DNA from: Tomocerus qinae
Taxonomy: Eukaryota > Arthropoda > Collembola > Entomobryomorpha > Tomoceridae
DNA: 64,000 nt
Assembly (NCBI GenBank): GCA_020055645.1
Contig: CM034546.1
Span: 56,544,001 to 56,608,000 of the forward strand
Reading direction: 5' to 3'
Position numbers and translations under genes: made by a program. Each line of letters opens with the position of its first letter. Position 1 is the first letter of the stretch. This document shows positions 21,319-52,870 of the stretch, piece after piece. The notes below the pieces were generated by a model. It was not told the DNA's origin and did no database searches. It was given only the letters and a program-made list of their open reading frames with translations.

Positions 21319-21336
21319 TCCATTCGGTTAAGTCCA

Positions 21337-23440: not shown

Positions 23441-23470
23441 CTGAGGATGACAATAGAATTTTGTCGAAAG
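23441..23470 (+). ncRNA. Hammerhead-ribozyme-like core, right PLE copy
   Basis: CTGAGGA (23441-23447) is followed by GACAA...TTGTC, able to form stem II, and then GAAA (23466-23469). These are the conserved halves of the hammerhead core (CUGANGA and GAAA) at the correct spacing. It lies about 155 bp after the stop codon, near the 3' end of the element. Stems I and III were not confirmed. Confidence 0.5.
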
Positions 23471-31640: not shown

Positions 31641-31808
31641 CGCATACACAAGCGTGGAAAAGTTGCAAGTTATTGCTATTGTTATTTATAACTGTTATTT
31701 TGCGTTGGAGTGAAAGACGAAAGAAGTTAGCGATGGTTTATAGTAAAGGGGGGCTATATAGTCTCAAAATTAGCAGACACCGACGGCGACGACGTACTGG
31801 CTGATATA

Positions 31809-32679
31809 CAGTATGTATCAAAAGTGGGTACACATAGGAGTTTATGGGTATACATAGTAGTTTAGTGTTTAGTATCCATAGCACTTCCATTGTTAGTTCA
31901 CAGTTCAATATGCAATTTTTACTAGCCAGATTTCCCTTTTATTATTTCATAGTTCGTCTCTCTTTCCTTCGTTTCGCAATAAATAAGGAGTTGCTTCAAT
32001 TTGAAGAACTCAATATGGACTGTCAATAAGTGAGCGAATTGAAATTGTAAAGATGCGGACAACAATGTCGTTACGAAAGGTGGCTGAGGAATTCACTATC
32101 CTGGAAATACAGTTAGCATCAGAACAGTAGCAGTTACCACAGCTCGGTTTGATAGGACTGGTTCAGTCAAAAACTTATCAAAAGTAAGAAGACAATTTTT
32201 TGATTCCTGAATTGGATGCTAAGGGAGGGGGTCCTCACAACATTTGGTTTCAGCAAGACAGTGCTCCCCCACATTATGCCATACAAGTTAAGATGAAACT
32301 TGATCATGATTATCATGATCAAGTGATCATGATCACTTCATCATGATCTGTGGTAACTGCTACTGTTCTGATGCTAACTTTCTTTCCAGGATAGTGAATT
32401 CCTCAGCCACCTTTCATGTTCATGTTGTCCGCATCTTTACAATTTCAATTCGCTCACTTATTGACAGTTTATCCATTTGAGTTCTTCAGATTGAAGCAAC
32501 GCTTTATTGCGAAAAGAAGGAAAGAGAGATGAACAATGAAATAATAAAAAGAAAACTGGCTGGTAAAAATTGGAAATTGAACTTGTGTGCTGTATACTAA
32601 CAATGAAAGTGCTATATGGATACTAAAATTCCATGTATACCCATAAACTCCTATGTATACCCACTTTTAATACATACTG
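31809..32679. mobile_element. Mariner-like fold-back element
   Basis: 871 bp between TA dinucleotides, with Tc1/mariner-style ends CAGTATGTATCAAAAGTGGG and the complement of CAGTATGTATTAAAAGTGGG. The inverted similarity is not confined to the ends: about 350 bp on each side mirror each other, including a scrap of the transposase N-terminal region (complement of CCTCAGCCACCTTTC). The centre encodes WFQQDSAPPHYA, a hallmark of the mariner catalytic core. It is non-autonomous. Confidence 0.8.
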
Positions 32680-35044
32680 TAGATACATTTATGTATATGA
32701 TACGCATCTATATACGAAAGAACTTCAAACAACAAAACTTCAGATTAAGGTGTAGATGTTCTATCCTTGCCTTGACCACTATGATATTATTTTCTACTAA
32801 TAGAAATATAACATTAGATATCTAGACCTATCTAAACAAGAAGCTATTCCCTGGCAACTATTTACTGCTGATATGAAAATTGACAATAGAAGAGTGTGAC
32901 ATCGAATATCGAGAATTGTCCGATTATATTATTTGTTCTTGTTCAATGGCCATACTTTTGTAAGCACCAGGGTCGCAGCGATGGGGCAGGGGTGCTAAGA
33001 TATGTGTTGCCCCCTCCCCCGAAATCCAGAAAAATAAAAAAATTATTGTCTGAAAACGCAAAATATCGTTAAAATTTCTTGAGTTAAATTTTACTCCATG
33101 CCCCTCCCTCCGCGGCCACCTCCTATTACTATAACTGGTGTTGTTAAATAAAACTAAACCAAATGCAGTCATGCAGGGTTGCGGTGGATGGAATGTTAAG
33201 ATAGTGGGTTAAAATTGGATAAAATCAATTTCTTTCTAATTTCGTCCTAACTGTAACAGAAAGTTGTCTTTCTTAATAATGTTGGTGACCATGTAAACAG
33301 ATTAAATTTTCCTCTCCGTTAAGAGTGTTTGTTCTTCCATGTCCGAAAGATAACGCATTAATATACAACCGAAAAATATATACAAACTATATTCCTTGAG
33401 CGGATTCTCAAAATTATGGACCATTGCCCCCAAAATTTTGTACCTGAAAATAGTATTTAGTGCGAAGCATGAGAGCGTGAATACAAATTAATTCTTCTTC
33501 ACACCATAAACAAAACCATTAACGTTAGAAGGTGTTACCTTGGAAAACTTTCACTTAGAGAAATGTATACATTATGCCTTATGCGTGTAGTGCCTGTGCC
33601 AGTAATAATAACTTATTATTGCCTTTACCTTTAAAAAATCAAAAAATTTTAAGGTTAAATTAATTTCATATCAATAATTTTAAAGTCTTATACTATTTCT
33701 TGACTACTTTTTCTCATTAAGAATAATATATGTGTATATTGAAACTGATTATTAACTCGTTCTGACCTTCTACGAGGAATCTGACTCCAAAAAAATCTGT
33801 TTGCTATAGCTATGCAAACACGCAGGACACGCAAACAAACATTAAGAAATCAAGGGTGTAACTAAACCATAAGTTTAGGAAGCCTGAATTTATGACTATG
33901 ACATAATATACAATTGTAAAGGGCTTAAAAATTATTCAACAATCATCCCTATTACAAAACAACTCTTCACAAACGGAAAATAAATAATTAAGTGGAGGCC
34001 AGAGCCCCAAGCTCACCTCTATCTACGCTGTTGGAGTTTGGAATAAATAAATATTTATTCTGATAACTAGTGTACCCATCAAATTCTGGCTTCTAGAATT
34101 AAAAAGTATATTGCATCTCTATCGGTTTTACAGCCGCCTGACTTTTATGGTCTTCATTCTTGATGGTCTACTGTGAGAGAATAATATTTTCTCTTTATCG
34201 AAAGTGTAACCCGCTACAATTAATGTAAATAGGAATAATTGCTCTATATATCTGTTAGAGGGGAAACATGTTTATTAGATCAGATTGTTCTATCCCTTAC
34301 GGCGAAGAAGACGATTACTAGAATAGATGGATGACATGATATATATATTATACCTTAATGCTATACACATATATATGCACATCATTAAAATGTACACCAC
34401 CACTATATAAGAAATAATTATCATCCCCCATAATAGTTGTGTGATTCGCCAAACCAACAGTTTGTTCGACAGCTTTTTTAAACATCCGATTTTTTCATGA
34501 TCGACGCGAATTGCTTATATTTTTAACGAACGGTTCAACACAAGCCTTGGGGTCTTGAGGTCAGTTTGATACTGTCTTGCAAAATCTTTGACTTGGTTCA
34601 ACTCAATAAAGTTTGTGGATGGCAGCGGCCCTGCTCGACTCTGGTCGCTCAACAAAACTAGCAAGTGTATCTTTTATCTCCTGATATCATTCGCATTCCA
34701 TTCCGTTCTCTGTATATGTATATACCATACTAATAAAACATATTTTATACACAATTAATTTACCATTATCATATGAGTATACAATTATAGTAGTTCAGCA
34801 TTCCATAAAAATTCATTGACCTAATGTATTACAATCTTATGAGATTGTTGGAGGTTTATTTTAAACCATAACAATAATATTATACAAAATGTTAATTTAT
34901 TATCATTAATATTAATAACTAGTGAAATTAATTATTATCTGATTATAAAGGAATTTACATTTGCAATAATAGTAATAGTAGAGAGGAATATAGATTTGAA
35001 GTTTTGAAATCCACTTTTATTTTGGCAGTGATAGTGTGATTAAA
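32680..35044. other. Intergenic, includes P450 upstream region
   Basis: No gene supported. About 32950-33175 has a GC-rich repeat-like patch (GGGTCGCAGCGATGGGGCAG). About 34655-34690 carries CTCAACAAAACTAGCAAGTG, resembling a block before the first P450 gene. The remainder is AT-rich. Confidence 0.45.
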
Positions 35045-37532
35045 ATGCTGTTTGAATTGTTAACTTTCGTACTTCTTTTCGTACTTTTCTACTTTGTGTA
35101 TTCACAGAGAAGGTGTAATGCATTCCCCCCTGGTGAGTTTTTTTAATTTACCCAAATATATATTTGCAAATTGTTAAATGGTTAAAAATATTCGTAATGC
35201 TGTATTATTGGCTACAAAGGTCCATTTAGTTGGCCCATTTTAGGGAATTTTATTCAGGTTGGTTTGGAACCTCATAAAACAGTTATGAAAATGAGGAAAA
35301 AGTACGGGAACATTATCGGTCTTCATTTGGGTCCTAAAAGGTATACTTAATCGCTTAGCTATTATAGCAATAATTATATGTGTATTGTATACAATAATAT
35401 TTTCTAATAACGGCTATGTTTTCAATTCAGGGCGGTGTTTATTAATGAATACGGAGTTGCTAAAGAGGCGTTTAATGTGTCTGCGTTATGTGGCCGACCT
35501 AAGTTTATCCATTTACTACCACAAGAAAGTGGGATATTCAGAGGTTATTAAATTTTAAATGTTAAAAACGTAAAATTCATTTAAGCTAATTCGTATACGC
35601 AACGATAAGTGGATGTAATCTATTCGGTTGCTTAAGAAACGATGTTATGCCCATGTGCCATACAAACTATTTAGTTTTATTTCAGTGGTAAAGTAGCTTT
35701 ACAGCTCATTTCTAAATATAGGAAACTCGGAAATTCGGAGAGGTTAGCTGACATGAACAACGGACAATAAAAAGATACTGATTACTGAAATACTGAGTAT
35801 AATACTACAGCCCTGTTTTCTTTTTTGTGCAAATTTTCAGGTTGTCATAGATTTCGCCAATTTCTGCACACATACCTTTCAAAATTTAATACATTTATTT
35901 TATATGCCAATTTTCAAGTTTCGTTAATTTATAAATGAACTATAAGTATTAGTAAGCTCGCCTCCGATTTTCCTGTTGGCACAAAACCTATCCTTCTACC
36001 AAATATTTAGAAATTGGAAAAATTTTATGTAAAAAAATATGATTTCTGTTTAGGAATTGTTTCAACATCTGGGAAAGCGTGGGTAGAACAGCGTCGGTTT
36101 GCGTTTTCGTATATTCAATCTGGTCTTCGGAATGGAGTACCTATTGAAAACTTAATCCTAAATGAAGCAAATGAATTGATTGACTTTTTAAACGAAAACT
36201 GCGGGCGATCAATCTCTACTGAGAATGTTTTCAATATTCCAGTAATAAATACTTTATGGAATGTCGTAGCTGGAGAAAGATACTCAGTGATGGATGCAAA
36301 ATTTTTAAAAGTTATAGAAAACTTTAAGGGGTAATATTTTAAACGTACTATATATTAGTTCAGCCTTTCAACTTTCTTTTCTATAAGCCTTTGAGATTTG
36401 ACGCTTTATAAAGTGGAGCACAGCACAAGACAATAATATTAATGTACAATACATAAGATGTTATCACATAACATTACTTGAATCAATGTATGACACATTT
36501 TTATCTAAGGATTATGTCCGCAGCCGCCGCTCAAGGGATATTTGTTTACTTTCCCAAATGGTCCACAAGATTTCCGAGGTTGTCTGGCTATAGCTATGTC
36601 ATGTCTTACGTCAATCCTATCTTAGAATTTATCCAAGAAGTAATTAATCGTCACAAAGAAACTTATGAAGAAGGGATTCAAAGAGATTTTGTTGATAGTT
36701 ATTTGCAAAAAATAAAAAGTACAACAGTCATCAATTCGTCCTTTTTTGGAGATACAGGAGGTATTTAAAACACATTTTAGCATTTAAATCTCGTTTCATT
36801 CTGAATTTACTTTTACTAAAATAATTCCTGCACTTTTACAACTTAAATGTAATACAAATACGTGCAGAAAATTTCAAAATTATCCAATTTTTAGCGGAAA
36901 GTATGAAGCATTGCCTTTTTGACATTCTGTTGGGCGGAACGGATACAGTAGCTTCCACTTTGAGATGGCTTGTGTATTTAATGGCATTCTATCCTGGAAT
37001 ACAAGAAAAGCTAAATAGCATTATCGTGAGACAAATCAAACCAGGAAAGTTACCGACTTTAAACGATCGACAAATGTGATAAACTAATTTTTTGCCTTAC
37101 CTTCCACAATAAATATAATATTTGACCTAGAAAGCACTATAATATAAAAATTTAAACGTCAGGGTTCGGAACATGCCACAAAAATATAAATATGTCATTT
37201 CACCTAACAAAACCTGGTAAATACCGTCATAGTGATAAACTGGCATATTGGCATAAACCCGAATTGAGAAATATTGCCCAGTATAAGCCATGGTTATAAC
37301 TGCTTCCGAACCCTAGTCTCATGTATGAAATTAATGATAATTTTTTAAATTCAGGTTGCCTTTTGTAAACGCAGTGATAGCTGAAGTTCTCAGATTTTCA
37401 TCTATAGTCCCCGTCGGAGTTCTTCACGAAGCTACAGAAGATGTCAAATTTTATGGGTACCTAATTCCTAAAGGAACCATGGTGATTGCAAATCAGTACG
37501 GAATAGCTCACGACCCGGATGTTTGGGGAGAT

Positions 37533-38164
37533 TGCGGTGGAATAGCGGGTAGCTCGTCCTGAGTGATCCCGATCTCCCCGTTATGCTGGTTAGTACTAAT
37601 TACTAACCTGTTAATCCCACTTTTGCCGGTGGGGTATTTTGTGGTGTAGAGAGAGAGCTGTGCTGGAGATGGAGTTGGCCAAATCCCGTGTGTCCGAGTG
37701 ACTTCCGGATGTCAACTCCGTCCCAGAATGTGACTGGGATATCCGCTCAGAATGTGACTGAGCCTCCTAAGTCCTCGAATCGGTTTGTATGCGATTATAT
37801 AATCGCGAGAGCCGTAAGTGTGACTCGTAGTGTGACTGTGCTTGATTGAGTGTGTGAATGGAACTCGGAGTGAATCGGTTTATACTTAAACCGATTCCGG
37901 GTAGTGTGTATGTGAGAATAAATGAGAGAGTGGAAAAGACAACGAGTGTATGTTGCACAGTATATTTATTTTTCTCCTCTCGGTCCGGTAGTCAGCACAC
38001 AATTGATTACAATTATTGAATTGTCCTGGCTATTGGATTGGGAGGCGAGCGGAGCAGGAATCGGATACATGGCAAATCCAACATGGATCCATGCATAAGA
38101 TGCATTGCTCTGAGTGGTTGCCTGTGTGTGTCATGTGTACACAGACAACCGCTAACCGCTTTCA
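37533..38164 (-). repeat. LTR (3' LTR of the element)
   Basis: 632 bp, starts TGCGGTGG and ends CGCTTTCA on the plus strand. It is the downstream LTR of the minus-strand element. It matches 46812-47443 with two differences seen. Confidence 0.95.
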
Positions 38165-38195
38165 CCATCTCACCCAAAAAATCCCCCCGTAGGTG
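38165..38195 (-). promoter_or_regulatory. Polypurine tract
   Basis: On the element strand the bases directly before the 3' LTR read GGGGGGATTTTTTGGGTGAG and then ATGG. This purine-rich run at the LTR edge is the expected plus-strand primer region. Confidence 0.7.
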
Positions 38196-38296
38196 GAAGG
38201 TGTCGCTTGGGTAGTGGGAAAATAGCTGAGGGTATTTTTTTTTACAAGAAAATAAGTGAATAAACCCTTAACCCAAAAGAACAAAAAAAATGAAAA

Positions 38297-40045
38297 TTAA
38301 TCATAAAACCGACGACCTTTACGCTCCTTATGAGCCTTGACACGGAGAAGGGACCTAGCTGGCGCGTTTACCCCTCTGCATTTTTTGAATTGAGGAGGTT
38401 GAAGCCCTTTAGCAATAGCATTAAGCTTTTTAGTTCTTTGATTAATCCTAAGGTTAGCTCTTTTCCTAGCTCTAACAATACGTTTACAATCAGTACAAGT
38501 TAAGTCAATAATGTTTGTATTGTATACATAGCAAGGAGGATGGTTCTGTTCAACTTGAGGATTTGATGATGATGATGCAGCTGCTGAAGGAATTTCTTGC
38601 CACGATCTCGAGTTCCTATCGAGAGAGTTCGCAATGCGTGGCGGCGTTTTGCTTGTAGATGGCTCGTCCATGAGAGTAGTTTGTTCTTCTGTCGTTGCTT
38701 CCTCTTCCCACGATCCTAGGTCGACACTAGGAATGTTCAACATGCGTGGGTTTGGAGGAGGATGAGAATCCCATGCATCGGAGGAGTTGGCATCGAGGTA
38801 ATCGAAATTGGTGACGTATTCGATGGAGTCCGCAATTTGGTCGCTCTTCCATTCATCAAGAATTATACCTTGATTGTCGTCCCGGTGAAGCTCCGACAAT
38901 AAGGCCATGACATCAAATGTAGGCCAAGATCGTACTAGCAGAAGTTCTGGTACAAGGTCTTCGATAACTTTTGGTTTAGTTGCCATAAGAATAGCAATCT
39001 TGGAATCTGACAATACTTTTGCGGTTGGCATGTCTCTTTTTCTCGCGATGGAGTTGATAAAGGTTAGTAAGGAGGTAAAGAGTGTAATTTGGTGAGAAAA
39101 GATCTTATCGTGATATTTACTATTAGACATGGTAAGAGAGTGAATAGCAGCGTTTAGACGGCTAAGAAAATGAATTTTTGGCTTTTTATAGACAGACAGA
39201 GTTGCTTCGATAGATTTTATAAATTTAAAGTCGCTAATATCAAGATTCTTAGATCTAACTTCCTTGTTCATGTAATTAAAAGTAGAAAGGAGAATTTTGG
39301 AATCTAACTTTGCATACTTTATCATGTGATTTGGAAGCGGCCTAAATCGCCAGTCAAATACCTGCCCGGCTTTGTCCAGGGTGATATTCCCGAAGCGTAC
39401 ACAAGTGTCTTTCAAACTTATCTTATGCAAACTAGGACCTTCCAAAAAATCATAATACTCTTGTGTGTCTATTACTGCTACGGAGAAAATGCTGAAATCT
39501 CTCTGAAGTGACCATATGTCGTTTTTAGCATCATGGAAAATCTTAGTGATTTTTTCTGACTGAAAAATTGGGGATAGAAGAGAATGAATTTCGGCATGTA
39601 ACTCTAAAGCGTCAATGACAAAGTCATGAGTGGGAGTTGATATTTGGACTATACACGTCATATCTAGATGACTGTCGTCCGAGTTACCTTCCCTATCTAC
39701 AGAAATCAACTCTTCCTCCGAAATAATGCGTACTGCCCTCTCTAAGTCTACCACAGTGTTAATAAGCATAAAGATTTTGTTAGTAGCAATAGAGAAAGGT
39801 TTGAAGATGGAGGAAGGAGGTTGCCAAGAAAAAATTTGGTCTTCCATAGGATTTACTGAGAAAGGAGGACGTTTATTTACAAGTTGCCTTGCGGCTAAAA
39901 GAGTAGGATCAAGGTCTTGGGGACGGATATGTACACGAGGACCTTGTCTTTTGGATTTGTGGAAAGCTAAAGCTTTTTCCTGCTTACGTGTCCACATTTT
40001 GGCAACAACTATAATACAAAAATTCCAAAAGATACGAAGAATCAA
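38297..40045 (-). CDS. EXOSC10/Rrp6-like DEDD-Y 3'-5' exoribonuclease carried by the LTR element
   Basis: Predicted 3'-5' RNA exonuclease. 582 codons from the first ATG; the likelier start is the second (M17, 39997, context AAAATGT), just after an acceptor-like site. The exonuclease fold spans about residues 90-265. Motif I is VDREG (D117, E119), motif II FHDAKNDIWSLQRDF (D176), motif III MIKYAKLDSKILL (Y244, D248). These are the five DEDD-Y residues, together with DWRFRPLP, typical of Rrp6/EXOSC10. An HRDC-like helical region follows (about 310-380, FINSIARKRDMP). The last 180 residues are Ser/Pro-rich, then strongly basic with a CTDC pair. The PMC2NT domain of cellular EXOSC10 is missing. 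It lies 66 bases after pol and before the polypurine tract, so it belongs to the element. Biological role unknown. Confidence 0.88.
   Translation of the reverse strand: MILRIFWNFCIIVVAKMWTRKQEKALAFHKSKRQGPRVHIRPQDLDPTLLAARQLVNKRPPFSVNPMEDQIFSWQPPSSIFKPFSIATNKIFMLINTVVDLERAVRIISEEELISVDREGNSDDSHLDMTCIVQISTPTHDFVIDALELHAEIHSLLSPIFQSEKITKIFHDAKNDIWSLQRDFSIFSVAVIDTQEYYDFLEGPSLHKISLKDTCVRFGNITLDKAGQVFDWRFRPLPNHMIKYAKLDSKILLSTFNYMNKEVRSKNLDISDFKFIKSIEATLSVYKKPKIHFLSRLNAAIHSLTMSNSKYHDKIFSHQITLFTSLLTFINSIARKRDMPTAKVLSDSKIAILMATKPKVIEDLVPELLLVRSWPTFDVMALLSELHRDDNQGIILDEWKSDQIADSIEYVTNFDYLDANSSDAWDSHPPPNPRMLNIPSVDLGSWEEEATTEEQTTLMDEPSTSKTPPRIANSLDRNSRSWQEIPSAAASSSSNPQVEQNHPPCYVYNTNIIDLTCTDCKRIVRARKRANLRINQRTKKLNAIAKGLQPPQFKKCRGVNAPARSLLRVKAHKERKGRRFYD
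40008..40030 (-). promoter_or_regulatory. Splice-acceptor-like site before the exonuclease ORF
   Basis: On the element strand, TTTTGGAATTTTTGTATTATAG ends at 40009, followed by TTGTTGCCAAAATGTGG. A pyrimidine-rich run, AG and then an ATG 12 bases later would let a spliced transcript express the third ORF, as env is expressed in retroviruses and errantiviruses. The donor was not identified. Confidence 0.45.
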
Positions 40046-40110
40046 ATTAAATGCTAAAATTAAAGTGTAAATTGATTATTTTACAAGTCGAAGTTGTCTG
40101 TACATGAAAA

Positions 40111-43100
40111 TTATGGTTTTGTGTTAGATTTTTTAGGTCTGACACCTCCCAAAACACGGTAGTCAACCCTGGAGCGAGCTCTGAGTTGACGACTGATTGG
40201 GATTTCTGGTTTTTTCCCTAACTGACTTTCAGCAAGAGAAATTGGTAACTTAATAGAGTGTTTAACCCTTTCGACATATGGCTTTAAATCTGCCACATGT
40301 CTCTTAACATTAATTTTACTATCTTTAGGTATATCTAGAGTGTACGTAAGTGGAGAAATAACTTTATTAATTTTATAAGGACCAATCCACTTAGGTAGAA
40401 GTTTTGCTGTAACATTTTTATCAGCGTCTGAGACCTGATTATTCCTAACTAAAATCTTATCATTAATTTTAAACTGTACATCTCTATGAAATTGATCATA
40501 GCGATTTTTAGTAACAATATGTGCATTAATTATATTATTCCTAACCCAATTAACGACTTCTAGTAATGAATTTGGCACATCAGAAAGTGCAGAAATTATT
40601 TCTTCGTCGGTTAGATTGGAATTTTGGACTTGCAAAGTTCTATCAATAGGTAATTGGAGTTCTCGTCCCAGATTTAACAAAGAAGGAGTAACTTGAGTGG
40701 TTCTATTAACCATGGTACGTAAGGCTAATGCAAATTTTTGGATGTGTTCGTCCCAATTCCCATGTTTGTCGCCTACGTAGCATGAAATAATGCGTTTTAA
40801 ATCTTTGTTAGTCCGTTCCGCCAAATTTGGCTGTGGGTGATAAGCACTTGTACAATGATGCTTCACACCCCATTCTTTACATAACTTTTTGATGGTTTTA
40901 TTTACAAAGTGTGACCCATTATCAGTAATCATAACTGCAGGGCTACCAAATCTACAAAATACGTCGTCTTCCAGAAAATCTCTGACACGTTTAGCTGTTG
41001 CTGAAGGCATAGGTTTTAGCTCAACCCAGCGACTTAACTCGTCAATAACAACTAACAGAAACTTATTTCTACGACCGCCACAACTAACAGGAAGTGGCCC
41101 AATGAAATCTATAAATATTTTTTCAAAAATGTACTTGGCTGGTTCCACAGTTCCAAGTAAACCCTGAGGCTTTAAAGTTTCATACTTATACCTCTGACAT
41201 ATATCACAAGATTTGACATAGTCAGTAATTTCCTTATTCATGTTGTTCCAGAAGAATCTAGCTTTAATTCTGTTTTTTGTCTTTTCTGAAGAAAAGTGAC
41301 CACCCTCAGGTGCGTCATGGAACATTTCTAACAATTCTTTTCTTAAAATACCGTCTGGTATGTATGGTACAACATTTTCCTGACACTTTGGCTGCAGTCC
41401 AATTTGATAGTGTGGTTGTTGCCCTGTGCGCAAAATATCCTGACTTGTTCGTTGAGAAGCAGAGTTCGAGGATGTATTATTACCGGATTTATTTTTATTA
41501 GAAATACTACGCCCAGTCAAGGGTTTAACACGTCTGTGTAGCAATCTGTTTTTTATGAAATAATCATTTTTGAGTTTCTCCAGTGCACGGGATGAAACTG
41601 TTTCATTTGAATTTAGCAATTTGATAATGTAATTGACTTCGTTGTCGTTTTGCTGAGCAATCAAAAGTCTATCAAAGAAGGTAGGCGTATAAGTAAGAAA
41701 ACTGGTTGGAGTGTACATAATATCCCTATTTCCGACAAGGTGATCAGGCTCATCTTCGCAAGGTGATACAGGCGCTCGTGATAAAGCGTCAGCTACTACA
41801 TTTTCCGTTCCTTTCACATGCTTCAACTCGCAACCCCATTCTTCTATTTCCTGTGCCCATCTCGTTAATTTTTTACTATTATTTTTAGTAGAATTTAAAT
41901 ACGTAAGTGCTTTACTATCCGTTAAAACTGTGAATTTTTCTCCCCAGAGATATGCACTAAATTTATTTATGGCCCAAATAATAGCCAAAAGTTCTCTGTT
42001 GCATGCCGAAAGATTCCTTTCAGTACTGGAAAGTACTTTACTAGCATAATAGATAACTCTTTCAAAATTTTGAACAACTTGAACTAGAACGCCAGCAATG
42101 CCAATGTCTGATGCGTCTGTTCTAACAATAATAGGCAGATTGTAATCTAATCCGTGTAACATAACATCTTCACACATAGCCTCTTTCATAATGTTAAATG
42201 CTTTTTCTTGTGCTTCAGCCCAGATAAATGGAACACCCTTCTTTAACAATTTGTACATTGGTTCGAATTTATCTGCGAATTTCTCAATAAAAGATGAGTA
42301 CCAAACGCACATTCCATGAAAACGAAGAATATCTTTCTTATTAGCTGGACGTGGAAAATCTACAATTGCGCGTACTTTCTCAGGTTCCTTCTTTAATCCA
42401 TCCTGTGATATGATATGTCCGAGAAAAGACAATTCGCGCTTACAAAAATTGGACTTTTCCTTATTAATAGTCAAACCAGCTAGTTTTAATTTTTCAAATA
42501 TAGACTCTAAGTGAGCAAAATGTTCTACTAATGATTTGCTGTAAATAATAATATCGTCCATGAAGACAAAACAATAATTATTAATACAATCAGCTAGAAC
42601 TCTATTCATTAAAGTTACAAACGTTGCCGGGGCATTACGTAACCCAAAAGGCATCACTAAAAATTCCCAAAGCTGTCCACACGCATGAAAGGCAGTCTTT
42701 GGAATGCTGTCTCTATGAAGTCTTATTTGCCAAAAACCAGATTGCAAATCTATAACACTGTACCAACCCCCTGTTGGTAACAGACGTAAAATATGATTTG
42801 CATTGTGCATTGGATTTGCATTTTTAGTAGTTTCAGCGTTTATGCCTTTGTAATTGATTGTCATGCGCCATTTATTAGGATCTTTCTTTCTACGCAAAAC
42901 AATATTAGTAGCATAAGGTGATCTACTAGGACGAATTAATTTCATACGTAATAACTCGTCTATCTGTTTCTTAATTTCAGCAGCTACTGATGGAGTAACT
43001 GGCCATGGTTTAGAATATACAACTTTATCACAACCTTCAATTTTGTGATAAGCCCAACTAGTTATACCAAATTCACCATTAGGTCTAACTACTGTTGGAT

Positions 43101-43608
43101 ATTTTGCAAATAATATATTTAACTTAGTTTCTACAGAATGATCATCAAACTCAGTAATAGGTCTATCCAAGACCGAAAAATTTACAGTATTATCTGGTTT
43201 GAGAGGATAGATGATTTGTGGAGAATCATCAAAACAAAAAGTATTTCTTTTCTGATTAGGAATAATTCCAAGAGATTTAATCAAATCATTTCCAATAAAA
43301 CAAGGAAATGCTAACTTATTTGCTATCTTAAACTTATGTATAACCCGTTTGAATCCCATTTGAAATTCGATTTCTACAGTTCCAAGTGTTTGCATTTGTT
43401 CATTATTTGCAACAGTGCAATTTTCTAAATTATAGTCAATTTGTTTTCCAAGTAATTTAGCCCATGGCTTTTCAATTATACTTCTTGAACAACCAGAATC
43501 GATTAAGGCTGTGAACTTTTTAGTTTTAGAAAGTATAGTAATTAGAGGTAAATTACTTTCATGAAGATCTGTGTCTAATACTGGGAGTAGGAAGGATCTT
43601 GTTGATTC
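40111..43608 (-). CDS. pol: LTR retrotransposon pol: protease, reverse transcriptase, RNase H, integrase
   Basis: Ty3/gypsy-order polyprotein, entirely open. It has no ATG at its start: the frame is -1 relative to gag and overlaps its end, next to a run of six G (43608-43613). The first in-frame ATG is at 43395, after the protease core. Domains in order: aspartic protease with LIDSGCSRSII; RT with the VIDLQSGFWQI and FVFMDDIIIYSK boxes (FMDD in place of YxDD); RNase H (IIVRTDASDIGIAGVL, YASKVLS); integrase with a HHCC zinc region (HDAPEGGH...CDICQRYK) and DDE residues in FIDFIGPLP, MITDNGSHF and NLAERTNKDL. A C-terminal LPKWIGPYKI block follows. All key residues are visible, so this looks like a working enzyme set. 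Confidence 0.95.
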   Translation of the reverse strand, partial: ESTRSFLLPVLDTDLHESNLPLITILSKTKKFTALIDSGCSRSIIEKPWAKLLGKQIDYNLENCTVANNEQMQTLGTVEIEFQMGFKRVIHKFKIANKLAFPCFIGNDLIKSLGIIPNQKRNTFCFDDSPQIIYPLKPDNTVNFSVLDRPITEFDDHSVETKLNILFAKYPTVVRPNGEFGITSWAYHKIEGCDKVVYSKPWPVTPSVAAEIKKQIDELLRMKLIRPSRSPYATNIVLRRKKDPNKWRMTINYKGINAETTKNANPMHNANHILRLLPTGGWYSVIDLQSGFWQIRLHRDSIPKTAFHACGQLWEFLVMPFGLRNAPATFVTLMNRVLADCINNYCFVFMDDIIIYSKSLVEHFAHLESIFEKLKLAGLTINKEKSNFCKRELSFLGHIISQDGLKKEPEKVRAIVDFPRPANKKDILRFHGMCVWYSSFIEKFADKFEPMYKLLKKGVPFIWAEAQEKAFNIMKEAMCEDVMLHGLDYNLPIIVRTDASDIGIAGVLVQVVQNFERVIYYASKVLSSTERNLSACNRELLAIIWAINKFSAYLWGEKFTVLTDSKALTYLNSTKNNSKKLTRWAQEIEEWGCELKHVKGTENVVADALSRAPVSPCEDEPDHLVGNRDIMYTPTSFLTYTPTFFDRLLIAQQNDNEVNYIIKLLNSNETVSSRALEKLKNDYFIKNRLLHRRVKPLTGRSISNKNKSGNNTSSNSASQRTSQDILRTGQQPHYQIGLQPKCQENVVPYIPDGILRKELLEMFHDAPEGGHFSSEKTKNRIKARFFWNNMNKEITDYVKSCDICQRYKYETLKPQGLLGTVEPAKYIFEKIFIDFIGPLPVSCGGRRNKFLLVVIDELSRWVELKPMPSATAKRVRDFLEDDVFCRFGSPAVMITDNGSHFVNKTIKKLCKEWGVKHHCTSAYHPQPNLAERTNKDLKRIISCYVGDKHGNWDEHIQKFALALRTMVNRTTQVTPSLLNLGRELQLPIDRTLQVQNSNLTDEEIISALSDVPNSLLEVVNWVRNNIINAHIVTKNRYDQFHRDVQFKINDKILVRNNQVSDADKNVTAKLLPKWIGPYKINKVISPLTYTLDIPKDSKINVKRHVADLKPYVERVKHSIKLPISLAESQLGKKPEIPISRQLRARSRVDYRVLGGVRPKKSNTKP

Positions 43609-45104
43609 CCCCCACTCCCTGCGAAGTTTAAATTATTATTATTATCAGCAGCCTGTGATCGCTCCGGAAAACCTGGAGGTGGCCTTTGGGGCTGATTTTG
43701 TTGAGGAGACTCTTCTTCAACATAAGGTTCTTCAACCTGTTCTTCTGACTGAAGAGCCATAGCAATAGGATGACGACACTCCTGTGTGCTATGCCCATAC
43801 TTCCTATGAATCTCACAATATAGCTTAGATCTATCAGTTTGGACATAATTGGATTGTGAAGAAGATTGGCCTCGTCCACGATAATTACCACGAGAAGAAT
43901 TTCCTCTGTAATTATTATTTCCTCTAGTTGGCTGACCTCGAGTCGTTGAATTGCCAGGTCTAGAGTTTCCTCTAAAGTTTTGTTGAGAAGTCCCAGTATT
44001 ATCATTACTAGGATTCTGAGACTGTTGAGAAGCGGAATTGGAAATTCTTGAAGTTCCCTGTCCTCGAAAATTATATCTCTGGCCGCGAAATTGGCCACGA
44101 ACATTGAACTGTTGATTTCCTTGAGTTTTAACAGTAAAATTATTCTTTTTGTCAAATTGTCTTCTTTCTCTTTCATTAAGAGGAGGAAGTTTAGAATTAG
44201 TGCCATTCTGTTCATCTCTTTCACGCAGATCGCGTAAAGCTGCACCAGCAGTGGCAATTAATTCTTCTGAGGTATTATAATTACCTCGACACAATAACTT
44301 TATATCATTATATAAAGCGTTTTTAGCTCGATGGACTGAAACAGCCTCAGGTTCGTTTGGAGTAACCTGGCGAGCTAATCGAACCATTTCATAAACAAAT
44401 TGTTCGACTGGTTCATTGTCCCTTTGGCGACGTTCACGTAAAATCTTTGCTCGATTTTCTGTGGTGTCCCAATCATCATATTTCATAGAAAATCTCTGTC
44501 TGAAATCTTCCCAGGTAAGCTGAGGAGTCTTAATATTGTCAAACCAAAGCTTTTGTTCGTATGACAAAATAGTAGGTAGCATATTAATGTACACATTTGG
44601 ACGAAAATTCATTGCTTGATAATAAAGTTCAATGTCATTCAAATATGTTTCAGCTGTATGTTCATGCGGCTTATATTTAGGAATAGGTATATTTGCCTTT
44701 GCATGTGGAACGATAACGTTCGCTTGAGCTGCATTTATTTGCTGGCCAAGAAAATTGTTTATTGCTGCAATTTGTTCAGGGTGCAGTTGTCCCATAGCAG
44801 GAGGTAATATTGCAGGAAGTTCTCTAATTGGATTATTCATATTGAGTGGATTTTCAATATTTTGTTCGAAATTTAAATGAAGTGGTTGCTCCGGAATATG
44901 AACAAGTTGATGTGGAGGAGTTTGTGGATTTAACTGCAATTCGTTTAAATCCAAATCATTAACTACTGAGTCAATGACTTCATCAATGTGATTTATTTGC
45001 TGTGGTTCAGCATTAACATTTGCATCTAACTGAAGTTGCCTTTTTTCTAATCTTATTTGCCTTTCTCTAGCTTGCTGTTCATCACGTTCTTTACGAGATG
45101 ACAT
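43575..45104 (-). CDS. gag: LTR retrotransposon Gag
   Basis: 509 codons. The N-terminal 50 residues are highly charged (MSSRKERDEQQARERQIRLE). The capsid-like middle contains the retrotransposon gag pattern YLNDIELYYQAMN, then WFDNIKTPQLTWEDFRQRF and RRQRDNEPVEQFVYEMVRLA. An Asn/Arg/Gly/Gln-rich RGRG tract (about 340-430) precedes one knuckle, YCEIHRKYGHSTQECRH, in which the second Cys of CCHC is His, a form seen in some Ty3/gypsy Gag proteins. Role: virus-like particle assembly and RNA packaging. It is in the same frame as the two small ORFs upstream, separated from them by stops, and pol follows by a -1 shift. Confidence 0.93.
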   Translation of the reverse strand: MSSRKERDEQQARERQIRLEKRQLQLDANVNAEPQQINHIDEVIDSVVNDLDLNELQLNPQTPPHQLVHIPEQPLHLNFEQNIENPLNMNNPIRELPAILPPAMGQLHPEQIAAINNFLGQQINAAQANVIVPHAKANIPIPKYKPHEHTAETYLNDIELYYQAMNFRPNVYINMLPTILSYEQKLWFDNIKTPQLTWEDFRQRFSMKYDDWDTTENRAKILRERRQRDNEPVEQFVYEMVRLARQVTPNEPEAVSVHRAKNALYNDIKLLCRGNYNTSEELIATAGAALRDLRERDEQNGTNSKLPPLNERERRQFDKKNNFTVKTQGNQQFNVRGQFRGQRYNFRGQGTSRISNSASQQSQNPSNDNTGTSQQNFRGNSRPGNSTTRGQPTRGNNNYRGNSSRGNYRGRGQSSSQSNYVQTDRSKLYCEIHRKYGHSTQECRHPIAMALQSEEQVEEPYVEEESPQQNQPQRPPPGFPERSQAADNNNNLNFAGSGGNQQDPSYSQY

Positions 45105-45122
45105 TAAAGAAGAAAATTTAAA

Positions 45123-45404
45123 TTAGTCGGTATGTCCGCTAATGGAAGTTGCACAGGCAATATCGTCGCAATAGATAAGCTGTGTAGAATAGAATTCAAA
45201 ATTATTTTTAAGACCGTAGTCGTAACAGGCAAATAGAAAAGAAATATGCTGAGTGATTTGTTCCTTATTGTTGTAGAATGTTTCGAAACAATTAGCCATA
45301 AACTGATCAAGTGAGGATATTGGTAATATTGTAGGTTTAACAACTACGATTCCATAAAGAAAGAATATTGGATGTGCTAATGTACTCAAATAAATTCTTT
45401 GCAT
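45123..45404 (-). CDS. Small ORF b ahead of gag, related to ORF a
   Basis: 93 codons from ATG. It starts MQRIYLSTLAHPIFFLYGIV, has LPISSLDQFM in the middle and NFEFYS near the end. It aligns along its length with ORF a (45423-45677): shared MQ, L..L..P.F...G.V.V, LP...LD..M, and FEFYS. Not transmembrane by eye and no recognised domain. It sits 18 bases from ORF a and 18 from gag, all in one frame but separated by stops, so reinitiation or readthrough is conceivable. Function unknown. Confidence 0.65.
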   Translation of the reverse strand: MQRIYLSTLAHPIFFLYGIVVVKPTILPISSLDQFMANCFETFYNNKEQITQHISFLFACYDYGLKNNFEFYSTQLIYCDDIACATSISGHTD

Positions 45405-45422
45405 GATTTAAATTGAAAATGT

Positions 45423-45677
45423 TTAAACTAAATCATTTACATTGATATCGAAAATACTGTAAAATTCAAATTTTCGTTGATTACAATAATGTAAGCATCC
45501 AATGAAAGTAGAGAATTCACTATCGTTATTAAAATGTCTGTGGTTGAACATTTCTTGGAGTTGGCTAGACATGATGAAATCTAAATAAGTCATTGGTAAC
45601 TCTGGTACACGTACTATAACAAATCCGTGTTGAAGGAAGAAAGGACTAACTAATTGTTCTAGTGTAAGTTGCTGCAT
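45423..45677 (-). CDS. Small ORF a, first ORF of the LTR element
   Basis: 84 codons from ATG, MQQLTLEQLVSPFFLQHGFV at the start and KFEFYSIFDINVNDLV at the end, with LPMTYLDFIM between. It is similar to ORF b, so the pair is an internal duplication kept open in both copies. The first ATG-led frame of useful size after the 5' LTR. I know no gypsy family with such a pair. Confidence 0.65.
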   Translation of the reverse strand: MQQLTLEQLVSPFFLQHGFVIVRVPELPMTYLDFIMSSQLQEMFNHRHFNNDSEFSTFIGCLHYCNQRKFEFYSIFDINVNDLV

Positions 45678-46792
45678 AATTAAATCGTTTGCATGAAATT
45701 GTTTTTTAGTGTAGGTATGTTATTTATGCAAGTTTAGGTTTAAACCCCAGAATACATTGAAAGTAATGTAAGTCTAAAAATCAGGCTGTGTACGCTGATA
45801 TAGACTGTCCATTATTATAATCAAGAACCAGGGCATTGAATTTAACAAAAATCCCGGTTTTACATTAATATAATACTATATATATATATATCCCCCCCAA
45901 TATTCATATACATAGGGAGGGTATGGTATGCGGGTATACTACACAATAATAATTATTAACTTCCAGATATTTTTTGATAATGTTTGTCATACCCAGAAGT
46001 TTTCGTAAAGTTGAAAATTATTCCAATGATATGCAGTAAAATTCTTGAGTGCCGTTTGTTCAACAGTACCTCAGGAACACTGCTGAAAAAAAACTAAGTA
46101 GTACGTGAGTACGTTTTTCCAGGAGTAAAGCCAGTATTCTTCAACAATTTTGGGAATACTCCGGCTGTCCTGTACTTCACGGCTGCTTGTAACCTGTTAT
46201 ATTACATTAATTAGTATTTTTATATATTTTTTACTTAATTAGTCTAAGTGTTTGCGATTTTTGGAAAATTTGGCCAGGAGGGCGGGTAGATTTTCCAAAA
46301 AGCAAATTTTATTTGACCCTATAATTTATTTTGGAGAGAAAATAAAACATTTATTTAATTTAGTTGGCATTTTCAGACTTAATCTAATAATATTTAAGAT
46401 TAATTGTAAAAATAGTTAACTCCCAAGTCACCCTTAAGTTTATTTAATTAATTTTGGCATTCCTTTTAATATATTTTAGTGAAAAATAATTAATTTATGC
46501 TTTTTAGGTGGATTCTCAAATGACTCAAACCCTAAAATTGAATTTAAATTGAAATAACCTAAGTATTTTGGAAAAATTGGAAATTCGGGCAGAGGCTCCC
46601 GCTCTCCCGAAGGATTTTCAAAAAATTTTTTTCGCTTTTAGCGATGCTTGGGCAACCGAAACAAAAAAAAATTCAAAATTATTCCAAAATGTTCACAAAT
46701 TAATTAATTTAAATGTATATAAATGTATTTAATTTAGAATTAGGTTAATTTAATATAAGTTTAAATTGGGAAACCCCGAAGATACCCGGTCG
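45678..46792 (-). other. 5' leader of the LTR element
   Basis: About 1.1 kb between the primer-binding site and ORF a without a useful frame. Contains a short TA run and a C-rich patch near 45880-45900. A packaging signal and splice donor would be expected in such a leader, but none can be pointed to with confidence. Confidence 0.5.
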
Positions 46793-46811
46793 TCCTGTCG
46801 CGTATCGCCAC
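46793..46811 (-). promoter_or_regulatory. Putative primer-binding site
   Basis: Immediately inside the 5' LTR the element strand reads GTGGCGATACGCGACAGGAC, that is TGGCGA... after one G. A TGG start is the complement of a tRNA CCA end. The sequence resembles arginine-type binding sites (TGGCGACCGTGACAGGAC) but has one extra base, so the primer tRNA is not certain. Confidence 0.6.
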
Positions 46812-47443
46812 TGCGGTGGAATAACGGGTAGCTCGTCCTGAGTGATCCCGATCTCCCCGTTATGCTGGTTAGTACTAATTACTAACCTGTTAATCCCACT
46901 TTTGCCGGTGGGGTATTTTGTGGTGTAGAGAGAGAGCTGTGCTGGAGATGGAGTTGGCCAAATCCCGTGTGTCCGAGTGACTTCCGGATGTCAACTCCGT
47001 CCCAGAATGTGACTGGGATATCCGCTCAGAATGTGACTGAGCCTCCTAAGTCCTCGAATCGGTTTGTATGCGATTATATAATCGCGAGAGCCGTAAGTGT
47101 GACTCGTAGTGTGACTGTGCTTGATTGAGTGTGTGAATGGAACTCGGAGTGAATCGGTTTATACTTAAACCGATTCCGGGTAGTGTGTATGTGAGAATAA
47201 ATGAGAGAGTGGAAAAGACAACGAGTGTATGTTGCACAGTATATTTATTTTTCTCCTCTCGGTCCGGTAGTCAGCACACAATTGATTACAATTATTGAAT
47301 TGTCCTGGCTATTGGATTGGGAGGCGAGCGGAGCAGGAATCGGATGCATGGCAAATCCAACATGGATCCATGCATAAGATGCATTGCTCTGAGTGGTTGC
47401 CTGTGTGTGTCATGTGTACACAGACAACCGCTAACCGCTTTCA
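46812..47443 (-). repeat. LTR (5' LTR of the element)
   Basis: 632 bp, the upstream LTR for the minus-strand element and so the one carrying its promoter. It abuts the target duplication AGAT at 47444-47447. Confidence 0.95.
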
Positions 47444-47720
47444 AGATCCAGAAGTATTTCGACCAGAACGATTTCTGAATGACGATGAAACAAAAATGCT
47501 TGACCATCTGGCAATGATGCCTTTCTCAGTTGGTCGGAGAGTGTGTCCAGGAGAATCTTTAGCCCGAGACGAATTATTTCTGTTTACAGTAAAACTATTT
47601 CAGTCTTTTAAAGTAGAATTTGACCCAAATGAGCCATTGCCTTTACTTGGACATGTAAATGGCCTGACGCTTTCACCAATGCATCACAAAGTGGTATTTT
47701 CCCCGAGATTTGAATATTAA

Positions 47721-49783: not shown

Positions 49784-50215
49784 AAGAGACATTTTTATAA
49801 TAACAAGTGACAAGCCATATTATAATCATAAACGACAATTTTCTAGTTTTCATACAAAAGATATCCTTAAAACGTGGCATAAATAGTTTAAGTCATAAAA
49901 TGTCCCTTTTCATTTTTTAAGCTCAATGGATTACTACCAAAATAACGTTTATATTTATATACATGGCAAAAGCGAAGTACCCCTCGCCTTACTAGTAGTT
50001 CAAGAAGTACACTAATAGTCCTAATGTTAAAGGATTCAGGCTGGTAGTACCAAAAACGCACTACCAAGACCTAAACGCGAGCCATTTTAGAGCACTATTA
50101 GGACATGGCAGTACATGCTATTAGAACACTTATTTATGGCTCTCAGAAATATACAGTGGTGTTCTACTAAGACCTAATGCTTAGTGGACAGCGCGCGCGG
50201 GTAAGTGCTCTACTG
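49784..50215. other. Intergenic
   Basis: No gene. About 49970-50215 is rich in words such as CTACTA, ACTATTAGGAC and GTACACTA that recur in the tandem array next to it. It may be a diverged outer part of that array. Confidence 0.4.
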
Positions 50216-50220
50216 ACTCC

Positions 50221-50393
50221 TACTATGCACATATGATTAGTATACTACCAGGTCCTTCTGTGAACAGATGATCAGTACACTACCAGGTCCTACTATGAAT
50301 GGATGATTAGTACACTACCAGGTCCTACTATGAATGGATGATTAGTACACCACCAGGTCCTACTATGAATGGATGATCAGTACATTAGCAGTT
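50221..50393. repeat. 35-bp tandem repeat, about five copies
   Basis: Unit: TACTATGAATGGATGATTAG then TACACTACCAGGTCC. Inner units are nearly identical, outer ones diverged. Confidence 0.85.
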
Positions 50394-50399
50394 TATTTT

Positions 50400-51630
50400 A
50401 TGTATCGATCATTATTACTGATAACATTACTGACACCATTGCAATAATAACATTTTATTGTACAGTTCAATATTATTTATTAACATAATTCAAAACATTT
50501 ACAACTGTTAATTCAACTTCACCCTACTTATCTGCTTCTTTCGCTTACTTAGTTCATACCTTTCCAACATCGTCGTATTGATGATTGAAAAGAATACAGA
50601 TTTCTTTATCAGCTGTATAACACTCTTCTCATTTTTCTTTAACCCTAAATATTTTGAAAACACGCTAGATATTATCGTTTGTTCACCAAAAAGAAATATT
50701 AAATTCCAAATTGGGAGAAACATAATATATAATTTCATTTTCATATGACATCAATTGCGTATATATCATTTTCGAATCAGTTTCAACATTTTAGTATCTG
50801 TTTGAGCGTTTACGAACTTGATCGAGCATTTCCGAATCCTTTTGAAACTTAGGATCTGAGATTATCTTATGATTACAGAAATGGAAATTTGGCCACTTAA
50901 ATGAGCTTTTTCTGTTTAAAACACCTAAAACTAAATCAGCCGAACTGATTGTGTTGTGTGATGACTGGATGACAGATAAATCAAGTATTTAAAAGGGATA
51001 CCGCCCTTTCAAAATCTACAGAGTGAATCCATCTATGGACAACCAATGAATAAAATCGACATCTTAGATTACCATAAGTATAGTCTCAAAAAATCAGAAA
51101 TGTCAAAAACTACAAGAATAAGTGGTTCAAACATTTTCTAAAAATCTCTAAACCCCTCCCAAGGGGGGTAAAAGTAAACAGAAATTACAGAAAATCATGT
51201 GTGACTAAATAATGAGATGATTATATCTCAGTAACAGTGCAAGGTATCAGTAAGAAATATTTTTTAAAAATACAAATGGGTATTGTAGATTAGTATAGAA
51301 ACAAATTTTATTTCTCATTGTTCGCGTTTTTCGAAATAGATCAAAATTTCCAAATTTTTTCAATTGAGAATAACAAGCGTGTCCCACAATTGCCCATGGA
51401 AGTTTGACTTGAATCGGAATAACGGGAATCTGAAGAAACAGATGCAATTTATTCCGCCGTGGGCAATTGTGGGACGCCGGAGATATTGTCGTTCAAAGTT
51501 TGGCAAAAAATGACTATTTTCGAACAAAATTAGTCCAGGGTTTCATAAATGGCATAAAAATGAAACTGGTTAATTAAAATATTAAATAGGTTTTCCAACC
51601 CATCTACTTATATCAAAATGTTTAGATAAT
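50400..51630. other. Intergenic
   Basis: A 78-codon lysine-rich minus-strand frame (50508-50744) has no recognisable motif. Around 51380-51475 the stretch CCCACAATTGCCCATGG recurs in inverted form (GTGGGCAATTGTGGGAC), giving a possible hairpin. Nothing supported as a gene. Confidence 0.4.
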
Positions 51631-51639
51631 TAACAGATG

Positions 51640-52870
51640 CGTATATTAGACATATATTGTTATATATTAGGGATACAGGCCTATATATTAGGCGTATATG
51701 CCCCTATATTGGGCATATATGTCAATATATCAGACATATATGGCTATATATTAGAAATTTATGGCTATATATTGGGCATATATCGATATATATTGGGCGT
51801 ATATAGGTATATAGTGGGCATATATTGGTATATACTGGGCATATATAGGTATATGTAGGGCATATATAGGTATATATTGGGCATATATAGTTACATATTG
51901 GGCATATATAGCAATATAATGGGCATATAAAGCTATATAATGGGCATATATAGCTATATAATGGCCATATATAGCTATATAATGGGCATATATAGCTATA
52001 TATTGGGCATATATACGTACATATAGGTATATATTGAGCAAATGAAGGTATATATTGGACATATATAGGTATATATTGGCCATATATAGGTATGTGTTGG
52101 GCATATATAGTTATATATTAGGCATATATAGTAATATAATGGGCATATACAGCTATATGTTGGGTATATATAGGTATATATTAGGTATATATGGCTATAT
52201 ATTGGACATATATAGGACCATATTGCGGATATATAGGTATATATTGGTCAAATATAGGTATATATTGGTCAAATATAGGTATATATTGGTCAAATATAGG
52301 TATATATTGGTCAAATATAGGTATATATTGGTCAAATATAGGTATGTATTGGTCATATATAGGTATATAATGGGCATATATAGCTATATATTGGGTATAT
52401 ATAGGTATATATTAGGTATACATTGGTCAAATATGGGTATATATTGGTCATATATAGGTATATATTGGTCATATATAGGTATATATTGGTCATATATAGG
52501 TATATATTGGTCATATATAGGTATATATTGGTCATATATAGGTATATATTGGTCATATATAGGTATATATTAGCCATATATAGGTATATACTGGGCAAAT
52601 ATAGCTATATAATGGGCATATATAGCTATATATTGGGAATATATAGGTACATATAGGTATATATTGGTCATACATAGGTATGTATTCAGCATATATAGGT
52701 ATATATTGGGCATATATAGGTATATATTGGGCATATATATGTATGAATTGGGCTTATAGAGTTATATATTAGGAATATATAGCTTTATATTGGGTATATA
52801 TGGGTATATATGGCCATATATTAGTCATATATGGCTATATGTTACTGATATAAATGACTACATAGAAGAC
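51640..52870. repeat. 21-bp minisatellite, about 1.2 kb
   Basis: Unit about CATATATAGGTATATATTGG plus T, repeated some 55-60 times with variants (AATATAGGT..., CATATATAGCTATATAATGG). Homogeneous runs at 52230-52350 and 52430-52570 contrast with mixed units elsewhere. The period is a multiple of three, so frames of up to 172 codons appear on both strands (heptads such as GIYRYIL and IYLYMTN). Confidence 0.92.

What the first reader, a model, noticed from the sequence alone, without database searches (positions are those of the whole stretch)
38297..40045. LTR retrotransposon carrying an EXOSC10/Rrp6-type exoribonuclease in the env position
Seen: an open 582-codon frame between pol and the polypurine tract, with all five DEDD-Y residues (D117, E119, D176, Y244, D248), the FHDAKNDIWSLQRDF and DWRFRPLP blocks, and an HRDC-like region. 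Known: these blocks in this order mark the exosome nuclease Rrp6/EXOSC10, and Ty3/gypsy elements normally have gag-pol with or without env. Inference: the element captured a host nuclear RNA-decay nuclease and has kept its active site, perhaps to trim or protect its RNA or to interfere with RNA surveillance or silencing. I do not recall a described family with this gene.
Basis: partly seen in the sequence, partly recalled or inferred. Interest (0 to 1): 0.93.

Follow-up and report, generated by a model that had tools for sequence, protein, structure and literature searches.

The report
Retrotransposon family with RNA-trimming enzyme
A family of virus-like jumping genes, probably of springtails, carries and keeps intact its own relative of a nuclear RNA-trimming enzyme, a design described before in rotifer elements with a related enzyme and possibly a tool against the host's RNA-based silencing.

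The parts
46812..47443 (-). 5' LTR, 632 bp, TG...CA
   Evidence: two mismatches to the 3' LTR
37533..38164 (-). 3' LTR, 632 bp
37529..37532 (.). target-site duplication, left copy (AGAT on +, ATCT on -)
   Evidence: matching copy at 47444-47447; P450 (PF00067) pieces on both sides
47444..47447 (.). target-site duplication, right copy
46794..46810 (-). putative primer-binding site directly after the 5' LTR
   Evidence: position in the sequence; tRNA identity not tested
45423..45677 (-). leader ORF A, 84 aa, unknown family
   Evidence: paralogous to leader ORF B; purifying selection; no Pfam hit
45123..45404 (-). leader ORF B, 93 aa, unknown family
   Evidence: no Pfam hit
43575..45104 (-). gag, 509 aa
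   Evidence: Retrotrans_gag E 1.3e-5
43626..43632 (-). UUUAAAC slippery heptamer for -1 gag-pol frameshift
   Evidence: same heptamer in 11 of 16 loci with gag and pol pieces; in the other 5 the frames are interrupted there
43580..43622 (-). stem-loop just downstream of the slippery heptamer
   Evidence: -23.8 kcal/mol, z -3.76
40111..43632 (-). pol frame: protease motif, RT, RNase H, integrase (H2C2, rve, SH3)
   Evidence: protease by eye
40009..40031 (-). candidate 3' splice site 11 nt before the ORF3 ATG
   Evidence: a site 0-12 nt before the ATG in the 9 loci scored (7 subfamilies); not seen before the first ATG picked in L046 and L051
38297..39997 (-). ORF3: Rrp6-type DEDDy 3'-5' exonuclease, 566 aa from ATG (open from 40075)
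39251..39778 (-). EXO domain of ORF3 (residues 90-265 of the 582-codon count)
38936..39145 (-). HRDC-like domain of ORF3 (residues 301-370)
   Evidence: sub-threshold; fold
38300..38515 (-). CxxC and basic C-terminal region of ORF3 (residues 511-582)
   Evidence: 16 positions invariant over 4 subfamily representatives, 22 K/R against 4 D/E in the last 80
38165..38194 (-). G-rich tract before the 3' LTR, probable polypurine tract
   Evidence: sequence by eye

Best explanation
SHOWN: a Ty3-type LTR retrotransposon clade carries, between pol and the 3' LTR, an Rrp6/EXOSC10-related DEDDy 3'-5' exonuclease gene (ORF3) that recurs in many subfamilies and is kept by selection with its active site intact. 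INFERRED: ORF3 is made as a separate protein, probably from a spliced mRNA in the manner of env. It works alone and not as an exosome subunit, since no PMC2NT docking domain is found. It is led to RNA by its own C-terminal zinc-knuckle or CxxC/basic region and trims RNA from the 3' end. The role I think most likely (about 0.35) is host-facing: removing or mis-processing RNA that the host's nuclear surveillance or small-RNA silencing uses against the element. The confidence below is for the core claim, a selectively maintained, catalytically competent accessory RNA exonuclease of the element.
For: Pfam, PDB sequence and fold matches to Rrp6. DEDYD in 19 of 21 copies read as they stand and in 5 of 5 further ORFs by alignment. 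dN/dS 0.22, 0.37, 0.26, 0.21 and 0.18 in five of seven close pairs, each p < 1e-3 against neutrality; 0.19, 0.23 and 0.26 in the three of five between-subfamily pairs where dS could be computed, dS being near saturation. EXO 53-68% identical between four subfamily representatives, HRDC 27-54%. 18 of 20 fetched exonuclease loci behind a related pol; 31 of 41 pol loci with an exonuclease within 3 kb. Folsomia candida P0022 and P0045 with pol plus ORF3, near the window group in the pol tree; the ORF3 part of P0022 itself finds exonuclease frames in the own genome at 4 places. CCHC in 9 of 20 exonuclease ORFs, CxxC plus basic tail in the 8 window-type ones. No PMC2NT hit in 11 exonuclease ORFs. 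3' splice-site candidates in 9 of 9 loci scored. Host Rrp6 or the exosome represses transposons or LTR elements in fly and mouse (PMC4577213 passages; PMC10842741 abstract).
Against: No activity, RNA or protein data. Two close ORF3 pairs do not reject neutrality: L057-L058 (w 0.56, p 0.06) and L044-L050 (3 changes only). ORF3 dN/dS is above pol's in every pair where both were computed. 7 of 21 ORF3 copies have stops or frame breaks in the matched region. Some pol loci lack ORF3: 10 of 41, of which 2 are partial pols and 1 has an exonuclease hit about 6 kb further on; downstream of one other, L068, only a zinc-knuckle stretch matches weakly (E 0.004), no EXO domain. Splice-site scores are modest one by one (rank 0-16% of background windows), L046 and L051 show no such site before the ATG my script picked, and no donor was sought. 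The role is a guess between at least two plausible ones.
Confidence: 0.75

Rival explanations
1. ORF3 works inside the particle on the element's own nucleic acid: it trims the 3' end of the genomic RNA, removes the tRNA primer or RNA remnants, or edits 3' ends during reverse transcription. The zinc knuckle would bring it to the packaged RNA as nucleocapsid does.
For: Gag-like CCHC or basic tail in the exonuclease ORFs; presence behind most pol loci examined; catalytic residues kept. The bdelloid authors suggest 3'-end processing of element RNA for their DEDDy ORF3 (PMC5408684 passage).
Against: ORF3 diverges much faster than pol (WIN-L044: dN 0.355 against 0.085), unlike a core replication enzyme; its rate is nearer to gag's. 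Related pols without an exonuclease nearby exist with long open frames.
Confidence: 0.3
2. ORF3 is a decoy or RNA binder that competes with host EXOSC10 or exosome cofactors without needing catalysis.
For: Homology to a host silencing factor (PMC4577213).
Against: All catalytic residues present in every copy without a break while the rest diverges to about 30% identity; no PMC2NT docking domain found.
Confidence: 0.1
3. Passenger or one-off capture without function, drifting to decay.
For: 7 of 21 copies have stops or frame breaks in ORF3, as expected for old element copies; two close pairs do not reject neutrality.
Against: dN/dS well below 1 in three window-type lineages and between subfamilies; recurrence in Folsomia candida.
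Confidence: 0.02
4. ORF3 substitutes for env (entry or exit function).
For: Position downstream of pol and an env-like splice-acceptor candidate.
Against: The frame is filled by EXO, HRDC, a low-confidence linker and a basic tail; no transmembrane or fusion segment apparent by eye, though no predictor for these was run.
Confidence: 0.03

Closest known systems
Bdelloid rotifer LTR retrotransposons Juno1/2 and Vesta2/5 with DEDDy exonuclease ORF3 (Rodriguez et al. 2017, PMC5408684; abstract and passages)
   Same: LTR element; non-env ORF3 after pol encoding a DEDDy-type 3'-5' exonuclease; related exonuclease ORFs also found outside LTR elements.
   Different: Bdelloid ORFs are called RNase D-like, are more like each other than like Rrp6 and other cellular families, have motif DEDD changed to DEED, and three lineages encode a dUTPase; the authors saw no significant departure from neutrality in intragenomic evolution. 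Here the ORF is of Rrp6 type with HRDC fold, DEDD, CCHC or CxxC/basic tail, no dUTPase hit, dN/dS below 1, host probably Collembola. Direct sequence comparison with bdelloid ORFs was not done.
Rrp6/EXOSC10, nuclear exosome nuclease
   Same: DEDDy EXO plus HRDC fold; best structure matches; the tree sets ORF3s and Rrp6 apart from bacterial RNase D (97/86).
   Different: No PMC2NT found; single open frame in an element; extra C-terminal zinc-knuckle or basic region; 28% identity to this genome's own EXOSC10.
Ty3/gypsy elements with env (errantiviruses; recalled, no call)
   Same: LTR, gag, -1 frameshift, PR-RT-RH-IN, third ORF with an upstream 3' splice-site candidate, 4-bp duplication.
   Different: Third ORF is an exonuclease; two extra leader ORFs before gag.
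Terminons (Athena Penelope-like elements) with DEDDy exonuclease (PMC6431247 passages)
   Same: Retroelement-borne DEDDy exonuclease.
   Different: Different retroelement class.

Membership tests
Ty3/gypsy LTR retrotransposon | Paired LTRs with target-site duplication | tested here: met
   632-bp LTRs, ATCT
Ty3/gypsy LTR retrotransposon | pol order PR-RT-RH-IN, Ty3 type | tested here: met
   (protease by eye); pol tree
Rrp6/EXOSC10 | DEDDy EXO domain with five catalytic residues | tested here: met
Rrp6/EXOSC10 | HRDC domain after EXO | tested here: met
   by fold for the window; by Pfam above cut-off for L056 and P0135 of 10 sister ORFs; window ORF itself below the Pfam cut-off
Rrp6/EXOSC10 | N-terminal PMC2NT domain | tested here: not met
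   no PF08066 hit in 11 exonuclease ORFs; 6 of 7 Rrp6-type proteins from the database have it, P0004 does not
Rrp6/EXOSC10 | Phylogenetic position within cellular Rrp6 | tested here: inconclusive
   the 8 cellular Rrp6 rows group together with ORF3s outside (91/80, below the starred level); both lie apart from 3 bacterial RNase D rows (97/86). Animal Nibbler, WRN or Exd1 rows were not in the tree
Rrp6/EXOSC10 | Association with the exosome core | not testable with these tools
   needs protein work
Bdelloid Juno/Vesta-type DEDDy LTR elements | DEDDy exonuclease as ORF3 after pol in an LTR element | tested here: met
   definition from PMC5408684
Bdelloid Juno/Vesta-type DEDDy LTR elements | dUTPase domain (three rotifer-specific lineages) | tested here: not met
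   no dUTPase among the Pfam hits of the 1094-aa pol stretch or gag
Bdelloid Juno/Vesta-type DEDDy LTR elements | ORF3 sequence kinship with bdelloid ORF3 | not tested

The most novel reading that the evidence does not exclude
A lineage of springtail LTR elements has for a very long time carried its own stand-alone Rrp6-like RNA exonuclease with an RNA-binding tail, turned against the host's nuclear RNA surveillance or silencing of the element: a retroelement counter-defence built from the host's own silencing nuclease.
Probability: 0.33. Interest if true: 0.85.

Novelty: new variant of a known kind. Interest (0 to 1): 0.64.

Why it matters
Rrp6 and the nuclear exosome repress transposons and LTR elements in animals (PMC4577213 passages; PMC10842741 abstract), so an LTR lineage that keeps a working-looking Rrp6 relative is a natural test case for RNA-level conflict between element and host. 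It shows that the exonuclease-in-env-position design, which I found described only for bdelloid rotifers, also exists and is selectively kept in what is probably an arthropod lineage, with a different subfamily of the enzyme.

Tried and rejected
Recent capture from the host: rejected, the host EXOSC10 is multi-exon at C4:9054850-9056404 and 28% identical.

One-off insertion: rejected.

A shared N-terminal motif as proof of one origin of all ORF3s: a regular expression found it in strict form in 7 of 35 sequences given, all exonuclease ORFs (L053, L054, L057, L058, L062, L064 and Folsomia P0022), and not in the window ORF, so it was not used. One origin of all element-borne exonucleases is neither shown nor rejected (AU p 0.249; the group needs 2 changes on the tree).

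Searches that gave nothing: viral contigs with ORF3 and with pol, phages. Bacterial-genome contigs gave 24 Ty3-like pols, none with an exonuclease match at E 0.1 or better. The two protein searches with ORF3 gave no close relative except the 80-aa P0133, 62% identical; each scored only 7991 candidates of limited length. Papers: searches showed no report of an Rrp6-type ORF3 in springtail or other arthropod LTR elements; the held library is open-access only.

Rows dropped: L043, L047, L049, L050, L052, L055 from the exonuclease tree (broken, or cut short by my frame picker; L047 has only one stop near its start); P0133 left out for shortness; Folsomia P0045 ORF3 not in that tree. Splice-site scoring left out L045-L047, L049-L052, L055 and L058.

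Full report

The element. LTRs are 632 bp at 46812-47443 and 37533-38164, two mismatches apart, with a 4-bp duplication ATCT. Both sides are pieces of one P450 gene (PF00067). gag and pol are open; pol holds RT, RNase H, H2C2 and rve domains, and its upstream frame a DSG-type protease motif (by eye). gag and pol overlap by 55 bases in the -1 frame with UUUAAAC at 43632 followed by a strong hairpin (z -3.76). The heptamer was found in 11 of 16 loci with gag and pol pieces; in the other 5 the frames are interrupted there. Between the 5' LTR and gag lie two short paralogous ORFs (30% identical; 0 of 1000 shuffles score as high). They are under purifying selection (ORF A, window to L041: 0 non-synonymous and 4 synonymous changes; w 0.12-0.21 between subfamilies where computable, with dS above 2) and match no Pfam family.

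Other copies. The window lies in a 334-Mb genome, G000, unnamed. ORF3 has 78 matches there; the union with two further queries gives 81 distinct exonuclease loci, fragments included and the host gene left out, a lower bound since only the best candidates were scored. I fetched 20 of these loci with flanks: 18 have a related pol on the same strand upstream, at roughly 40 to 99% identity to the window pol; L059 and L060 do not. The pol search scored 42 of 1116 candidates and gave 59 matches in 41 loci; 31 of the 41 have an exonuclease within 3 kb downstream. Of the 10 without, two are partial pols, one of them (73101037) belonging to the interrupted copy L043 that does carry the ORF about 6 kb off; one more has an exonuclease hit about 6 kb on. 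Downstream of one other (L068, 2.4 kb) 32 exonuclease proteins found no EXO match; the best hit (E 0.004) is the zinc-knuckle stretch of L053 against a 193-aa gag-like ORF. Of 7 loci with LTR pairs examined, 5 show 4-bp duplications (window ATCT, L042 CAAC, L051 GTAG, L053 GCAC, L057 TAGT, read by eye); in L048 and L056 the 5' end is cut by the fetched stretch.

Constraint. Reading each copy as it stands, 19 of 21 have DEDYD; L043 (three stops) has N for the first D and L052 is broken at the first two residues. Five further ORFs, L062-L066, also have it in the alignment. 7 of 21 copies have stops or frame breaks in the matched region: L043, L049, L050, L052, L055, and near their starts L047 and L051. 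Pairwise dN/dS of ORF3: window-L041 0.22, window-L042 0.37, L041-L042 0.26, L048-L051 0.21, L045-L046 0.18, each p < 1e-3 against neutrality; L057-L058 0.56 (p 0.06) and L044-L050 0.55 (3 changes) do not reject it. pol in the same seven pairs gives 0.07-0.23, gag 0.06-0.33 in the six where it was measurable. Between subfamilies ORF3 dN is 3 to 5 times that of pol. Identity between subfamily representatives is 53-68% in EXO, 27-54% in HRDC, 29-49% in the acidic linker.

Architecture. No PMC2NT domain is found in 11 exonuclease ORFs, whereas 6 of 7 Rrp6-type proteins from the database have it. Of 20 exonuclease ORFs looked at, nine (L053, L054, L056, L057, L058, L062, L063, L064, L066) carry a C-x2-C-x4-H-x4-C zinc knuckle; the eight window-type ones have CxxC and a basic tail with 16 invariant positions over four representatives; L059 and L065 (frame ends early) have neither and L060 a lone CxxC. 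Pfam's zf-CCHC scores only E 0.01-0.24, and in 3 of the 5 knuckle-bearing ORFs scanned. A 3' splice-site-like sequence lies 0-12 nt before the ORF3 ATG in the nine loci scored, ranking within the top 0-16% of windows of the same element; L046 and L051 show none before the first ATG that my script picked. The scoring matrix was recalled, not fitted.

Kinship. In the exonuclease tree (32 rows) element-borne ORFs and cellular Rrp6 part from 3 bacterial RNase D rows (97/86) and the window group is firm (100/99); several long branches are unplaced, and a single clade of all element-borne ORFs is not rejected (p 0.249). In the pol tree (33 rows, quick method) the window group is sister to a set of Orchesella dallaii, Folsomia candida and one metagenome pol; L056 and the L053-L058 group lie further out and carry the exonuclease; whether Orchesella and the metagenome pols do is not known. 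Folsomia P0022 is named a Pol polyprotein and contains PF01612 (E 1.8e-12); P0045 joins pol to the N-terminal part of the same ORF3, without a Pfam hit there. In the own genome the ORF3 part of P0022 matches exonuclease frames at four places (E 1e-8 to 4e-6). Both species are Collembola, so the host is probably a springtail; this is inference. The host EXOSC10 is a normal multi-exon gene at C4:9054850-9056404, 28% identical to ORF3. An 80-aa metagenome protein, P0133, is 62% identical to the window ORF3, more than any EXOSC10.

What it does. The kept active site, the missing exosome docking domain and the added RNA-binding-like tail fit a stand-alone, RNA-directed 3'-5' exonuclease made for the element. 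Its fast divergence, nearer to gag than to pol, and the fact that Rrp6 and the exosome hold down transposons and LTR elements in animals (PMC4577213 passages; PMC10842741 abstract) make a host-facing role my first choice at about 0.35; action on the element's own RNA or cDNA in the particle follows closely at 0.3. An exonuclease domain of arenaviruses takes part in suppressing innate immune signalling (PMC7968707, start of the abstract in the listing), so such use has a precedent.

Prior art. Bdelloid Juno and Vesta LTR elements carry a DEDDy ORF3 (PMC5408684, abstract and passages); passages in PMC6338049 and PMC5718144 also name exonuclease accessory ORFs of LTR elements, and PMC6431247 those of Terminons. 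I saw no report of an Rrp6-type ORF3 in springtail or other arthropod elements. Hence 'new variant of a known kind'.

Noticed in passing
window 37529-47447: The element sits inside an exon of a P450 gene, splitting HDPDVWGD from PEVFRPERF; the near-identical LTRs suggest a recent disruption.
   Followed up: partly
window 45123-45677 (minus): Two paralogous short leader ORFs (84 and 93 aa) before gag, under purifying selection and without a Pfam match; in L048 and L051 only one was found.
   Followed up: partly
window about 19128-23528: A 4.4-kb near-perfect palindrome (99.7%) whose arms each carry a 604-aa RT plus GIY-YIG ORF (Penelope-like by these domains); could be a head-to-head element or an assembly artefact.
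   Followed up: partly
L066 and L067: A 2860-bp repeat, 99.76% identical in two places, carrying an exonuclease ORF (428 aa, with CCHC) as its only long ORF and no LTR seen; mode of movement unknown.
   Followed up: partly
L059, L060: Exonuclease ORFs (386 and 431 aa) with no related pol in the 6.9 kb upstream; L059 lies beside ORFs that look hAT-like by eye.
   Followed up: partly
L068, 465-1043: Behind a related pol without exonuclease lies a 193-aa gag-like ORF with a zinc knuckle that weakly matches the C-terminal part of the L053 exonuclease ORF (E 0.004); a possible source of the knuckle.
   Followed up: partly
window 31804-32684, 50204-50413, 51600-52000: Nested inverted repeats (foldback-like), a 35-bp and a 21-bp tandem array.
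   Followed up: no
L001-L024: Ty3-like pols in contigs filed as bacterial or archaeal genomes, probably eukaryotic contamination.
   Followed up: no
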